A stretch of 59,964 nt of DNA from Chryseobacterium gleum (GTDB lineage Bacteria; Bacteroidota; Bacteroidia; Flavobacteriales_D; Sanyastnellaceae): the NCBI GenBank assembly GCA_945862415.1, contig CAMAYP010000003.1:1-59964 (forward strand), in the 5' to 3' direction. The notes beneath the pieces are model-generated. The model was given only the letters and a program-made list of their open reading frames with translations, was not told where the DNA came from and searched no databases. Positions 3,715 through 10,197 of the stretch are shown one piece after another. The position numbers and the translations under genes were made by a program. Each line of letters begins with the position of its first letter. Position 1 is the first letter of the stretch.

Positions 3715-3882
3715 TTACTTTTTCGATTTGGAAGAACTCTTTTGTTTAGGAGACGATGTTTTCGCTACCTGTTTCTTTTTAAAATCTTGAATAATCTTAT
3801 TGATTTTCTCCTTCTCCTTTTTTGTCAAAGGTTTGGGTATAAATTCAAAATCCACACCCATTGGTTCTCTTACTATTCCCAT
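3715..3882 (-). CDS. Small basic protein (55 aa) paired with the GNAT-like gene
   Basis: The ATG is at 3882-3880 and the stop at 3715. The amino half carries VREPMGVDFEFIPKPLTKKE, which resembles a short motif (REPxGVDF..PxPLT) that I recall in tiny Bacteroidota proteins encoded beside a GNAT-fold protein. The carboxyl half is a predicted basic helix ending in a Lys/Ser-rich tail. It begins 4 bases after the stop of the upstream GNAT-like gene, so the two are translationally close and very likely one operon. No function is known to me. A toxin-antitoxin or regulator-enzyme relationship is a guess from size, charge and pairing. Confidence 0.7.
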   Translation of the reverse strand: MGIVREPMGVDFEFIPKPLTKKEKEKINKIIQDFKKKQVAKTSSPKQKSSSKSKK

Positions 3883-3886
3883 GCTA

Positions 3887-4414
3887 TTAGGATTTAAAAT
3901 ACTTATCTACTAAAAAGGCGGCAGCGGTTGATTCAATGACCATGAGCTGACCTCCGTGATGAGCGGCACCGAGCGTCTTCACGTAATGATCAATCAATGC
4001 TGTTTTTGCGTGAAAGGAAACAAATCCGTCAAAGCCCCTTTGAAAGGATAGTCGGCATGCAAATGCAACGAGATTGCCCGGCGCCCCGAGATAGACCTTA
4101 TCCACTCCACGATTGAACGGAGCACTTTCAATCAAAGGCATGTAAATAAAGCTTTCTTCAATGCGCAAACTAATTACAGCTTGAATAATCTCAGGGCTGC
4201 TTTCTATAGTTAACTTATAGACTTCTCGATCATTTAAAGCCCATTCATCCTTCCAATTAAACTTCCAGCCATTTCGCTTCGACACTGATTTGAGATCTTC
4301 CTTTACGAGGACAGACACAACGGTTGAAAAACTGTCACCCGTTCTAACATTTTCAATCGAACGAGTTAGCTTATCTACCTCAAAATCCAAGTATTTGACG
4401 ACCTGTTTTTTCAC
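3887..4414 (-). CDS. GNAT-fold acetyltransferase-like protein
   Basis: The frame is open further upstream, to 4606, but that part is translated from a palindromic repeat. I therefore start at GTG 4414 (VKKQVVKYLDFEVDKL), giving 175 residues. The centre has FIYMPLIESAPFNRG and YLGAPGNLVAFACRLSFQRG (about residues 89-127), a glycine-containing loop then a helix, as in the acetyl-CoA binding part of GNAT folds. HYVKTLGA and a terminal FLVDKYF helix follow. The segment is typical of short GNAT-like proteins found with a tiny partner gene in Bacteroidota and cyanobacteria. Substrate is unknown. The partner gene follows after 4 bases. No obvious promoter is seen; the upstream DNA is repeat. Confidence 0.7.
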   Translation of the reverse strand: MKKQVVKYLDFEVDKLTRSIENVRTGDSFSTVVSVLVKEDLKSVSKRNGWKFNWKDEWALNDREVYKLTIESSPEIIQAVISLRIEESFIYMPLIESAPFNRGVDKVYLGAPGNLVAFACRLSFQRGFDGFVSFHAKTALIDHYVKTLGAAHHGGQLMVIESTAAAFLVDKYFKS

Positions 4415-4491
4415 CTGTCTAAGGTAATGCAGATACCCTGTGAATCGGAGTTTTAGAATGGGATAATTCCGACTTTTACAACGACCAACTT

Positions 4492-4634
4492 GCCCCTCGA
4501 CTTCGCTCGGGGACCGGATGTTCCGCCGGTAATTTGGCCTCGGCTTCGCTCGGCCGCACGCACGCGACGGCCGAGCGGAGCCGAGGCCTCCTCTTTTGCA
4601 TATCATCGCCGGTCCCCGAGCGAAGCCGAGGGGC
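4492..4634. repeat. Nested palindromic intergenic repeat, copy 1
   Basis: Two inverted pairs are nested. The outer arms are 4492-4517 and 4609-4634 (26 bases, one mismatch). The inner arms are 4536-4556 and 4568-4588 (21 bases, one mismatch). The shared core is CTCGGCTTCGCTCGG. Together they could fold as one long imperfect hairpin. A similar element lies at 6848-7006. Both copies lie in the 3' spacer of a minus-strand gene, on the far side of a GC-rich terminator hairpin from that gene. The element makes up most of the 433-base gene-free stretch 4415-4847, together with a terminator and a heptad repeat. Confidence 0.8.
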
Positions 4635-4847: not shown

Positions 4848-6548
4848 CTACTGCAGCACAATCGCCCTTGTATCCACCGGCACGCCCTGCGCATTATAGA
4901 TCACCACCTGGTACGTGCCCGCACCACCCCACGTGCCCAGCTGCAATACTTCTTGCTGTTGGCTGATGTTGGCCGAGTGAATTTCCTGTCCGATAGAATT
5001 GAAAATCTTCAGGGTGTATCCTGCGAGTGAAGCGAAGTCGCCGTAGTCAATAGTGAGCTGCTCACTAGTCGGATTCGGAAACATCAAAATTGTGTTCTCA
5101 TAGGTCACGGGATTGAAACCTGTTGGGTTGAGATTGATGATGAGTGTGTCGGTGACGGTGATGTATGTGGTGTCTATCACATCAATGTGCGTCGTGTCCG
5201 TAACGGTTACATAGGTTGTGTCATAAACATCGACAATATTCTCAATATATGTCGTGTCGTAAACCTCACTAAATAGTGTGTCATAGATATCCACCTGCAA
5301 AAAAACAGTTGTGGTATCGAATACATCAATTACGTTCACAAGGGTATCGTACACATCAACCGTATTGACAATATAAGTCGTGTCATAAACCTCGCTGAAG
5401 AGTGTGTCATAGATTTCAACTTGCAAATACACCGTGATCGTATCGAATACATCAATTACGTTGGTGAGAGTATCGAACACTTCTACTGCCACAGTAATAG
5501 TATCGAACACGTCGATATTGTTATATACCGTAAGTGTATCGAACACATCAACCACATTAACCACTGTGGTCGTATCAGTAATTTCAACAACCAAGGTATC
5601 ATAAACGGTCACGTTGGTTTCAATTGTATCGTAAACGGTTGCAGACTGAGAATTGAACCATATCGTATCCGTGCAATTGCCATTATTTACCCAAATGAAA
5701 TCTTGCGAAGTCGGCTCAACTGTAATCGCCTGACTCGATTCTCCGGTTGACCATGTAGGATTGACTGTTGTAGTCAAAGTATCAATTACAAACCCTGAAG
5801 TGTAACCACTCACCAAAGAGCCGTCGTAGCAAATAGGCCAGGATGGATTGAGGTTAGTGGGTTTAATCCAAAATTCGCATGTAATATTACTTGTAGGCAA
5901 AACTTGATCGAAAATGATACCGCTATTAATGCCATTAAACTGAGCACAATTTCCCCAAACACCTGTTGACCATTCGACGTTTGTAGCCATACCATTCACA
6001 CCAGCACTGCCATTAACAGCGAAACCAGAAGTTTCATCGAGATGCCAAAGACCAATAGTATTTGCATCAGCAGCAAATGGAGACTCATTAAGGTAATTCT
6101 GAAGTATTTCCGACTCACTTCTTACTACACTTGACAATCTTACCTCATCTATGAAACCTTCAAAAGGCGAAATAATTTGCCCCCCGGTTTGAAAAGTGCC
6201 ACCAATAGCATATCCCAGTATGAATCTCGTCCAATTATAAAAATTGTTGTAAGTATAATTACCAGCAAATATCAATTGTCCATTTAAATAGATGGTTGAT
6301 GCACCTGCATTAGGATCATCGCCCTTTGTAAAAGCAACATAATTCCAATCATTTTGTTCTAACAGCATGAGGAAGTCTTGACCCAACTGATTGTTTACAT
6401 AGGCCTGGGCACCTCTTAGTTGCAAATCCGAATGAGGTGTAGAAGTAATTGTCACGGAACCTATCGCATCGCAATTGCTTTGCGCCGTTGCGGCAATACG
6501 TAACCCCAAGAGCACAGCGATTGTCAGAAATACACTTTTCTGTTTCAT
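4848..6548 (-). CDS. T9SS-exported LamG-domain protein with tandem Asp-Thr linker repeats
   Basis: The 566-residue protein begins with a signal peptide (MKQKSVFLTIAVLLGLRIAATAQ). A LamG/concanavalin-like region covers about residues 35-235 (typical GFIDEVRLSS, TIGLWHLDE and CEFWIKP strands). A short stretch (about 240-305) leads to a long linker (about 305-475) built of VFDT/VYDT/TDTT units, including two 42-residue copies. The last 85 residues form a type A T9SS sorting domain (FPNPTSEQLTIDYG ... LKIFNSIGQEI ... GTYQVVIYNAQG ... VLQ). It is therefore likely moved across the outer membrane by T9SS and anchored or released. The LamG part suggests carbohydrate or adhesive binding. No catalytic domain is visible. 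Confidence 0.85.
   Translation of the reverse strand: MKQKSVFLTIAVLLGLRIAATAQSNCDAIGSVTITSTPHSDLQLRGAQAYVNNQLGQDFLMLLEQNDWNYVAFTKGDDPNAGASTIYLNGQLIFAGNYTYNNFYNWTRFILGYAIGGTFQTGGQIISPFEGFIDEVRLSSVVRSESEILQNYLNESPFAADANTIGLWHLDETSGFAVNGSAGVNGMATNVEWSTGVWGNCAQFNGINSGIIFDQVLPTSNITCEFWIKPTNLNPSWPICYDGSLVSGYTSGFVIDTLTTTVNPTWSTGESSQAITVEPTSQDFIWVNNGNCTDTIWFNSQSATVYDTIETNVTVYDTLVVEITDTTTVVNVVDVFDTLTVYNNIDVFDTITVAVEVFDTLTNVIDVFDTITVYLQVEIYDTLFSEVYDTTYIVNTVDVYDTLVNVIDVFDTTTVFLQVDIYDTLFSEVYDTTYIENIVDVYDTTYVTVTDTTHIDVIDTTYITVTDTLIINLNPTGFNPVTYENTILMFPNPTSEQLTIDYGDFASLAGYTLKIFNSIGQEIHSANISQQQEVLQLGTWGGAGTYQVVIYNAQGVPVDTRAIVLQ
5247..5500 (-). repeat. 126-base imperfect coding tandem repeat
   Basis: Two consecutive copies with a period of 126 bases (42 codons) lie inside the linker of the LamG protein; for instance the phrase gtgtcatagat recurs exactly 126 bases apart (5277 and 5403). 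At the protein level each unit contains YLQVEIYDTLFSEVYDTTY or a close variant. Degenerate smaller VxDT units flank them. The repeat keeps frame. Confidence 0.75.
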
Positions 6549-6847
6549 TGTAAAAATTGTTTTTGTTCTACTCTGCCCCGCAGTAGCGTTTGTTTTAATA
6601 AGTAAAGCGTGGGACAGTTACCGATACCTGTAAGTGAGGGAGTAGAAGCCCTGAAAACGAAGTATAGTAACGCCCACGCTTTTGCGTGAGCGTTGCACTA
6701 AAACCTCTCGTTTTCTGGAATTTTCTACTTTTCACTTACGAGTGTTCAGCAAACGCTGTATTGTATGTCAGCCGTTGTGGCGGTTGATTATGTCATGTGT
6801 TGGGTTTGTTGTTGCGAATGTAATGCGATATGCCGTCGACTGCGCTG
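6549..6847. other. Gene-free spacer upstream of the LamG gene
   Basis: I find no credible gene in this spacer. It contains a 10-base inverted pair (aaagcgtggg 6604-6613 with its complement 6673-6682) and no exact TAnnTTTG element in front of the LamG gene. Open frames across it lack any family signal. The rest of the spacer up to 7191 is repeat and terminator and is listed separately. Confidence 0.5.
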
Positions 6848-7006
6848 CCCTCGACTACGCTCGGGCACCGGGATTTTAATTTAGCGATTGGGCCTCGGCT
6901 TCGCTCGGCCACAGTGGGCGCTCGGCCGAGCGATGGTTCGACAAGCTCACCAACCGCTGAGGCCAAGCTCATAGGAAAACATCCGGTACCCGAGCGAAGC
7001 CGAGGG
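6848..7006. repeat. Nested palindromic intergenic repeat, copy 2
   Basis: The outer arms 6848-6871 and 6983-7006 are inverted copies (24 bases, a few mismatches) of the same CCCTCGGCTTCGCTCGGG family as copy 1. A further arm is at 6891-6910, partly matched by GCTCGGCCGAGCG near 6920. Between them lies GGTTCGACAAGCTCACCAACC (6935-6955 region), a phrase also partly present beside copy 1. It is again adjacent to a GC-rich terminator. Confidence 0.75.
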
Positions 7007-7007
7007 T

Positions 7008-7045
7008 AAAAAAAGAGGGGCCAACGCCCCTCTTCTTTTTTTTTT
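7008..7045. terminator. Bidirectional-looking terminator hairpin
   Basis: Stem GAGGGGC/GCCCCTC (7015-7021 with 7026-7032) is flanked by seven A on the left and a long T run on the right, so it could stop transcription from either side. It probably serves the M42 peptidase gene, whose stop is at 7192. It is nearly the same hairpin as at 4709-4726. Confidence 0.7.
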
Positions 7046-9091: not shown

Positions 9092-9581
9092 CATACCGAC
9101 CCTTCCAACGCGCTTCAACGTGCGTGCATACTTCATCATGTTCAACGATGCGCAGGATGCAGTTCTCGTGAGCGACGAACTCATCTTCGGTAATGCATAC
9201 ACAAAATTTCCGGGCGGTGGAGTGGATTTCGGTGAAGGACCTTCGCAAACTGTACTGCGCGAAGCGATGGAAGAAATGAAGCAACCCATCGAAGTAACCG
9301 GACATTTTTACACGACAGACTTCTACTTGCCGTCGTTCTTTCATCCCGCCGATCAAATTATTTCCATCTATTACACGGCGCGTATGATAGGCGCACAACA
9401 ATTCACCGATGCACACATCGCGTTCGATTTCAAACAACGCATCTACAACGAGGAATCATTTCGTTGGGTGAAGTTGAGCAGCATACGGGAGGATATGTTT
9501 CATTTTGCGGCGGACAAGAAGGTCGCTGCCCTGCTCGCTGCGCATTATTTTAACCGCAAAGGCGCAGAGGACGCAGAGTAA
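9084..9581 (+). CDS. Nudix hydrolase
   Basis: I choose ATG 9084 ([12 protein letters not shown]), 165 residues, overlapping the mnmD stop by 8 bases. The Nudix box is at residues 45-67 ([20 protein letters not shown]): G45, E51, R59, E60, E63 and E64 fit GX5EX7REUXEE, while the usual following glycine is replaced by Lys. Nudix enzymes cleave nucleoside diphosphates linked to another moiety; the substrate here is unknown. The last ten or so residues ([10 protein letters not shown]) are encoded by the left arm of the downstream terminator-like inverted repeat, so the carboxyl end has probably been replaced or extended by repeat DNA. Confidence 0.88.
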
Positions 9582-9618
9582 AAAATTCTCTGCGTCCTCT
9601 GCGCCTTTGCGGTTAAAA
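9548..9618. terminator. Perfect 31-base inverted repeat with 9-base period, bidirectional terminator
   Basis: Arms 9548-9578 and 9588-9618 are exact complements with a 9-base loop, bounded by T/A runs, so the hairpin could end transcription from both sides. It lies between the convergent Nudix gene and the conserved unknown gene. The arm shows a 9-base period around CGCAAAG, CGCAGAG and CGCAGAG. It includes the stop codon and last codons of the Nudix gene. A degenerate relative is at 51927-51993. Confidence 0.85.
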
Positions 9619-9621
9619 AAA

Positions 9622-10197
9622 TTATGTGGTAAGGCGTCGCATCACGTGGCGTTCGACGGACTCAAACAATTGATCGGGATTCATCGTGCGCCAGCGCATT
9701 TCATTGAGTTTTCCGCCCGACACAAAATAGCGATCGATGTTGGCATCACCCATGTCGGCAAGCACATGCTCACGTGCATTCATAAGCGCAATCCAACCCT
9801 CATTTTCATTCACTTCTTCAAACCACTCTTCGTAGTAGCTGTCGTCCGAAAAGTGAAAGTTCAAGATATTCTCACCAATCAAAATAAACTTCGTAACGCC
9901 CTCCTTCAGCATGAGCTCAATGACTTCGCGCTTCAAAAACATGATGTCGTTGTAAAGCAAATCATTCCACTCTCCTATAAACTCAATGACAGCAAATCCA
10001 CTATCATAATGGCAATACAGGACTTTCATGAAAAGCGTCTGGCTACCGAAACTGTCCCACTGCGGATGGATGTAGTAGTTGTAAATCTTCGATGTAAACT
10101 CAAACTCCGAATACTCGCGCTCGAAGAACGGTGAATACGGATCTTCCGCTGCCACATAGTAGCCACGCCAGTTGTAGTATGGTTCGATGTCGTGCAT
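9622..10197 (-). CDS. Conserved hypothetical protein of Bacteroidota, cotranscribed with murQ
   Basis: The 191-residue product is acidic and rich in Tyr, Trp, Glu and Phe, with no signal peptide or membrane helix. It contains EFTSKIYNYYIHPQWDSFGS, AVIEFIGEWNDLLYNDIMFLKREVI and NILNFHFSDDSYYEEWFEEV. I recognise these as a conserved but unnamed cytoplasmic Bacteroidota family, often near murQ. The ATG at 10197 comes 2 bases after the murQ stop, so they form an operon. A link to muramic acid recycling is only suggested by this neighbour. Confidence 0.8.
   Translation of the reverse strand: MHDIEPYYNWRGYYVAAEDPYSPFFEREYSEFEFTSKIYNYYIHPQWDSFGSQTLFMKVLYCHYDSGFAVIEFIGEWNDLLYNDIMFLKREVIELMLKEGVTKFILIGENILNFHFSDDSYYEEWFEEVNENEGWIALMNAREHVLADMGDANIDRYFVSGGKLNEMRWRTMNPDQLFESVERHVMRRLTT

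What the first reader, a model, noticed from the sequence alone, without database searches (positions are those of the whole stretch)
3715..4414. GNAT-like protein plus tiny basic partner: a candidate uncharacterised two-gene module
A 175-residue GNAT-like protein is followed after 4 bases by a 55-residue protein with an REPxGVDF...PxPLT motif and a basic tail. I recall similar pairs across Bacteroidota and cyanobacteria without assigned function. Small size, tight coupling and location among repeats resemble toxin-antitoxin or modifying-enzyme/regulator pairs. The catalytic state of the GNAT is unknown.
Basis: partly seen in the sequence, partly recalled or inferred. Interest (0 to 1): 0.5.

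Follow-up and report, generated by a model that had tools for sequence, protein, structure and literature searches.

The report
GNAT-fold toxin with tiny basic antitoxin
Two adjacent bacterial genes, an acetyltransferase-like protein and a tiny basic partner, look like a mobile poison-and-antidote pair, and relatives of the poison are found beside DNA-binding antidotes or built into a phage head protein.

Summary
The pair is real: a GTG-started 175-aa protein (window 3887-4414, minus) and, 4 bases on, a 55-aa basic protein (3715-3882, minus). No convincing match in Pfam, NCBIfam, PADLOC or PHROGs. The larger protein is GNAT-fold by structure prediction. In 395 class genomes, 79 of 120 GNAT places have a small-partner profile hit downstream (30 of the 79 fed that profile); of the other 41, 40 were read: 35 are followed by a larger ORF (153-195 aa where measured; HTH_3 in 5 of 6 tested), 4 by a small partner the profile missed, 1 ends at a contig end. 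The GNAT tree separates small-partner from HTH-partner rows. In Fusobacterium phage phiPaco the domain is the C-terminus of a MuF head protein followed by a 58-aa ORF: the polymorphic-toxin layout. Nearest flanking genes differ in almost every locus, relatives sit on plasmids and phages, and partners sometimes occur alone. Best reading: a type II-like toxin-antitoxin family whose antitoxin has no recognised DNA-binding domain; target unknown, aminoacyl-tRNA by analogy. Toxicity, acetylation and binding are untested; a joined AlphaFold model was inconclusive on binding. New variant of a known kind.

The parts
3887..4414 (-). GNAT-fold protein, 175 aa, GTG start; proposed toxin
   Evidence: ORF; homologues in 77 of 395 class genomes; GNAT fold by AlphaFold2 with Foldseek and VIA-align
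3715..3882 (-). small basic partner, 55 aa, REPxxVDF...PLT motif, one predicted helix, Lys-rich tail (pI 10.2); proposed antitoxin
   Evidence: ORF; conserved next to the GNAT; helix 21-43 predicted alone; pI
4419..4426 (-). TACCTTAG, candidate Bacteroidota -7 promoter element ending 4 nt before the GTG; would make the mRNA leaderless
   Evidence: TAnnTT at -12 or -11 from the chosen start in 64 of 76 homologous loci; window sequence; the -7 consensus itself is recalled
4492..4634 (.). palindromic repeats upstream of the pair (context, probably not part of the module)
   Evidence: the repeat finder I4, I8; CTCGGCTTCGCTCGG with up to 2 mismatches: 7 matches in the window against 0.08 expected

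Best explanation
A mobile toxin-antitoxin module of a GNAT family not covered by the family libraries tried. The first gene encodes a GNAT-fold acetyltransferase that, when free, would acetylate an essential target and stop growth (aminoacyl-tRNA is the target of characterised GNAT toxins; for this family that step is analogy only). The second gene, probably translated from the same leaderless mRNA, encodes a short protein whose REPxxVDF...PLT segment and helix would bind and silence the GNAT; its Lys-rich tail may bind nucleic acid in place of the HTH domain found in the sister clade's partners. Loss of the module would leave longer-lived toxin and so stabilise the replicon. Shown: linkage, conservation, predicted fold, varied genomic context, HTH-type partners in the sister clade, MuF fusion. 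Inferred: toxicity, neutralisation, substrate, lability of the antitoxin, leaderless start.
For: Linkage: GNAT places of 150 bits or more have the partner profile within 400 bp downstream in 58 of 60, and 90-150 bits in 14 of 16; 30 of the 60 had supplied the profile's rows, and of the other 30, 28 have a hit, one has a partner read by eye and one lies at a contig end. Among the best 80 genome-contig loci, 78 show an open partner. Remote relatives are followed by larger ORFs, with HTH_3 in 5 of 6 tested and above cut-off in 3. GNAT tree: all 28 small-partner rows and all 30 HTH-partner rows lie on opposite sides of a 100/98 branch. MuF fusion with a following 58-aa ORF. Plasmid relatives: a 59-88-aa ORF is next in 6 of 6 annotated records read. 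Context differs: 137 nearest flank genes in 75 loci fall into 124 clusters, none above two. Window copy and C63 copy sit in different subclades. Partners occur alone, one beside a GNAT remnant. Partner and GNAT distances correlate in 70 pairs, r 0.33 against a shuffled maximum of 0.15.
Against: No experiment. Partner and GNAT are both basic (median pI 9.9 of 70 and 9.1), unlike the usual acidic antitoxin (recalled). Similarity of the small partner to the N-terminus of HTH-type partners is not significant (hhalign E 0.05-0.08). The joined model does not place the VDF segment with confidence: pLDDT 52 over partner residues 5-14, against 63 (1-10) and 79 (11-20) for the partner folded alone; the following PLT and helix are confident in both. 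PADLOC has no match. The acetyl-CoA loop is unusual (G-V-P-G-N-L type, no R/Q). One locus (L070) has an open GNAT and a frameshifted partner. The correlation does not remove shared ancestry. VIA-align does not single out GNAT toxins from other GNATs.
Confidence: 0.7

Rival explanations
1. A non-toxic modifying enzyme and its regulator: the GNAT acetylates a cell protein or small molecule, and the partner is a cofactor, targeting subunit or substrate (its Lys-rich tail could be the acetylation site).
For: 70 partners have pI 8.9-10.6; the GNAT fold is shared with many ordinary enzymes at similar Z.
Against: MuF head-protein fusion, HTH_3 in partners of the sister clade, unrelated flanks, patchy presence: 77 of 395 class genomes, 31 of 395 in the phylum draw.
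Confidence: 0.13
2. A toxin that acts by binding, not by acetylation, as PacT is reported to act on Fur without acetylating it.
For: The loop lacks R/Q and often has Pro at the last position of the motif; PacT precedent (PMC9561280, passages).
Against: Tyr144 is invariant in 62 of 62 rows; by motif (LxxHYxxxLGA) it resembles the tyrosine mutated in the AtaT Y144F and KacT Y145F structures (titles), an equivalence I infer and did not map residue by residue.
Confidence: 0.1
3. Mainly an effector of phages or mobile elements with an immunity protein (polymorphic-toxin cargo), stand-alone copies being reservoirs of cassettes. This overlaps with the best explanation.
For: MuF-GNAT in phiPaco, near-identical domain and small ORF in five IMG/VR contigs and a second MuF-GNAT in L115; a pair beside a Mu-like phage transposase and repressor.
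Against: Most copies I saw are stand-alone genes in bacterial assemblies; no defence-family match.
Confidence: 0.2

Closest known systems
GNAT-RHH toxin-antitoxin systems (AtaRT, TacAT, KacAT, ItaRT)
   Same: GNAT-fold component in a small two-gene operon; TacT3, AtaT and KacT are among the structural matches
   Different: The partner has no RHH match in Pfam and no recognised DNA-binding domain; it follows the GNAT gene; 9-13% identity in the structural alignments with these toxins
GNAT-Xre systems (predicted in PMC2701414; PacTA, PMC9561280)
   Same: The remote clade of this GNAT family is followed by proteins with HTH_3 matches
   Different: The small-partner clade has no HTH match; [quoted passage not shown] kinship to PacT was seen by fold only (Z 10.8)
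MuF polymorphic toxins of temperate phages (PMC5576092)
   Same: In phiPaco the domain is the C-terminus of a PF04233 protein and a small ORF follows
   Different: 'acetyltransferase' and 'GNAT' have no occurrence in that paper's held main text; the window copy is a stand-alone protein
GNATs of polyvalent proteins (PMC5512222)
   Same: GNAT domains used by phages and conjugative elements, with solo versions in Firmicutes (passages)
   Different: Described there as RimI-like and in other architectures; membership was not tested

Membership tests
GNAT superfamily | GNAT fold | tested here: met
   Model residues 21-170 have block pLDDT of 80-96; 642 of 998 chains at Z 8 or more, the 50 listed rows being mostly named acetyltransferases or GNAT toxins
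GNAT superfamily | R/Q-x-x-G-x-G/A acetyl-CoA loop | tested here: inconclusive
   A glycine-containing loop is kept, R/Q is not, Pro or Ala often stands at the last position
GNAT superfamily | acetyltransferase activity | not testable with these tools
   needs an assay
type II toxin-antitoxin | two adjacent co-directional genes conserved as a pair | tested here: met
type II toxin-antitoxin | toxin stops growth, antitoxin restores it | not testable with these tools
   no bench work
type II toxin-antitoxin | direct protein complex | tested here: inconclusive
   the joined AlphaFold2 model does not place the VDF segment with confidence
type II toxin-antitoxin | antitoxin with a DNA-binding domain (usual, not universal) | tested here: not met
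   no Pfam match for the 55-aa partner up to E 10; met in the sister clade for 5 of 6 tested
GNAT-RHH (AtaRT/TacAT) | RHH antitoxin | tested here: not met
   coil plus one long helix predicted
GNAT-Xre (PacTA) | HTH-Xre antitoxin | tested here: not met
   not met for the window partner
MuF polymorphic toxin | PF04233 N-terminal domain | tested here: not met
   absent from the window protein; present in the phage relatives phiPaco and L115

The most novel reading that the evidence does not exclude
One GNAT warhead family serves both as a stand-alone addiction toxin in Bacteroidota and as virion-carried MuF cargo in phages, and changed antitoxin type between an HTH protein and a tiny basic protein without a DNA-binding domain; the Lys-rich tail is a decoy or an acetylation-controlled switch, so that the toxin modifies its own antitoxin.
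Probability: 0.15. Interest if true: 0.75.

Novelty: new variant of a known kind. Interest (0 to 1): 0.5.

Tried and rejected
Family libraries gave nothing convincing for the pair. PDB sequence searches gave nothing useful. Similarity of the small partner to the N-terminus of HTH-type partners, which looks alike by eye, was not significant and is not claimed. Binding was tried with a joined model and, as control, the partner alone; inconclusive. Broken genes: stops inside the GNAT in 5 of 31 rows and 4 of 81 loci, with the partner ORF open in these nine; partner frameshifted with an open GNAT in one, L070. With a threefold difference in length this proves nothing. An empty site at the window locus was not shown: relatives of the flanking 981-aa protein were found (best 53% identical) but their neighbourhoods were not compared. 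The sigma-70 and terminator scans found nothing above chance. A viral scan with the window protein alone found no relative; with alignment A1 it found two. Alignment A5 seemed to put the small partners on the GNAT's N-terminus and was discarded. The small-partner profile A2 was built from 30 pairs that lie in the genomes later searched with it; the figure without these is given. A family that VIA-align does not list is not excluded.

Full report
Observation. On the minus strand, GTG 4414 to stop 3887 encodes 175 aa and ATG 3882 to stop 3715 encodes 55 aa, with 4 bases between. Pfam gave only an unrelated match at E 0.13 for the larger protein, NCBIfam and PADLOC nothing, PHROGs weak matches at E 0.02-0.22. 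The genome (G000, 208 contigs, 2.66 Mb, 87.5% complete) has a second pair on contig C63.

Linkage. In 395 genomes of the class, 77 have a GNAT homologue and 71 a match to the small-partner profile A2. Of 120 GNAT places (some are fragments of one gene), 79 have a partner match within 400 bp downstream on the same strand: 58 of 60 at 150 bits or more, 14 of 16 at 90-150, 4 of 26 at 50-90, 3 of 18 below. A2 was built from 30 of these pairs; among the other 30 places at 150 bits or more, 28 have the match. Of the 41 places without a match, 40 were fetched and read: L162, L163, L183 and L188 have a small-partner-like ORF (46, 148, 55, 54 aa), L201 lies at a contig end, and the other 35 are followed by a larger ORF of 153-182 aa, 195 in L198 and unmeasured in L196. 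One place (G306:C116) was not fetched. Six of the 35 larger partners were given to Pfam: five match HTH_3 at E 1e-5 to 1.2e-3, three above the curated cut-off; L198 matches nothing. In the set of 80 loci from genome contigs (the best 80 of 562 confirmed), 78 show an open partner, L059 has only 123 bases left, and L070 has the partner frameshifted. Of 29 loci L005-L033, 28 show it and L019 has no flank.

Reverse test. Of 96 partner matches, 78 have a GNAT match upstream and 18 do not. Twelve stretches holding 13 of the 18 were read: L151 and L152 lie at contig edges, L155 keeps a GNAT C-terminal remnant, L157 and L160 look degenerate, L161 is a weak match, and L150, L153, L154, L156, L158 (two copies) and L159 show no GNAT upstream. 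Their neighbours were not searched against families. Five weak matches (E 0.0018 or more) were not fetched. So the partner can stand alone, while every GNAT place read with enough flank had a downstream neighbour.

Fold. AlphaFold2 on the two window genes read as one chain, with an alignment of 34 rows (8 joined, 26 GNAT only), gave mean pLDDT 80.4 and pTM 0.80; residues 1-15, 175-186 and 224-231 are below 50. Foldseek and VIA-align return GNATs, TacT3 first by Z (12.5, rmsd 2.8, 140 aligned), but rows within 1 of it include Listeria 2oh1 (12.1), so no subfamily is singled out. Across 62 family rows F52 and Y144 are invariant; the loop keeps glycine but not R/Q. The partner alone (36 rows) folds as one helix, 21-43. 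Partner residues 5-14, which hold the VDF motif, have pLDDT 52 in the joined model and lie in blocks of 63 and 79 when the partner is folded alone; the PLT-helix part is confident in both. The models therefore do not show how the partner binds.

Family tree. In a 62-row tree (five rows with stops or too short were left out) a 100/98 branch separates 31 rows (28 small-partner rows and the phiPaco MuF, Paenibacillus and Treponema domains, whose neighbours are also small ORFs) from 31 rows (30 HTH-partner rows and the long-branched Streptococcus row). The root is not known, so the direction of change is open. The window copy groups with L034 and L037, the C63 copy with L201, so the two were probably acquired separately.

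Phage and plasmid forms. The phiPaco minor head protein (524 aa) has PF04233 at 201-307 and the GNAT domain after it, and the next ORF, 58 aa, overlaps its end. Five IMG/VR contigs carry the domain at 96-100% identity with the same small ORF; three of them show a 527-aa frame, L210 a 341-aa frame, and L213 is cut by the contig end. L115 carries a second, frame-broken MuF-GNAT with its own small ORF. The MuF N-terminal part matches 1037 phage records (E 1e-3), while the phiPaco GNAT domain finds phiPaco and one partial match (E 1e-2), as expected for an exchangeable C-terminus. L114 holds a close pair (61-62% identity) near a Mu-like transposase, transposition protein and repressor. Plasmid relatives occur in Paenibacillus, Streptococcus, Treponema, Aneurinibacillus and Niallia (18 records); seven were read, six have annotation there, and in all six a small ORF of 59-88 aa follows; H4 is unannotated.

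Mobility. 137 nearest flank genes in 75 loci make 124 clusters with none above two members. Presence is patchy: 77 of 395 and 31 of 395 in a draw from the phylum. Internal stops in several GNATs fit gene decay.

Expression. In 76 loci, with the start taken as the ATG or GTG nearest to 13 codons before the DxLTxS motif, TAnnTT lies at -12 or -11 in 64 and the start is GTG in 43; in the window TACCTTAG ends 4 nt before GTG. That this is a Bacteroidota -7 element and makes the mRNA leaderless is inference from a recalled consensus.

Reading. Linkage, HTH-type partners in the sister clade, MuF fusion and mobility together favour a toxin-antitoxin or toxin-immunity module over a housekeeping enzyme. 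Literature seen as passages: GNAT-Xre and GNAT-RHH pairs were predicted in 2009 and then thought more likely to serve antibiotic resistance (PMC2701414); PacTA is a tested GNAT-Xre pair (PMC9561280); GNAT toxins identified by 2020 acetylate aminoacyl-tRNA (PMC7180214). Searches of the held library (listings only) showed me no paper that describes this family; the library lacks most subscription journals, and annotations such as 'GNAT family N-acetyltransferase' exist for some plasmid members.

Verdict. Real, conserved, mobile, unnamed in the libraries tried; a new variant of the GNAT toxin-antitoxin kind, with function still to be shown.

Noticed in passing
window 4492-4634 and 6843-7032: Palindromic repeats around CTCGGCTTCGCTCGG, 7 matches in the window against 0.08 expected, perhaps REP-like elements on both sides of the 4848-6548 gene.
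   Followed up: partly
window 4848-6548: 566-aa secreted-looking protein with degenerate VYDTTY..VDVFDT repeats (126-nt direct repeat at 5218-5469).
   Followed up: no
L202 (G287:C12), L208, L158: A partner ORF of 135 aa holds the partner motif twice (L202); L208 and L158 have two partner-like genes close together.
   Followed up: no
L114 149-5676: A GNAT-partner pair next to the repressor and transposase region of a Mu-like phage, about 300 bases from the contig end.
   Followed up: partly
L034-L113, upstream of the GNAT: Conserved T-rich tract at -19 to -15 before the TAnnTT element; could be a binding site.
   Followed up: no
window 9544-9622: 35-nt inverted repeat, 97% complementary, with 9 nt between the arms, at the junction of two ORFs.
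   Followed up: no
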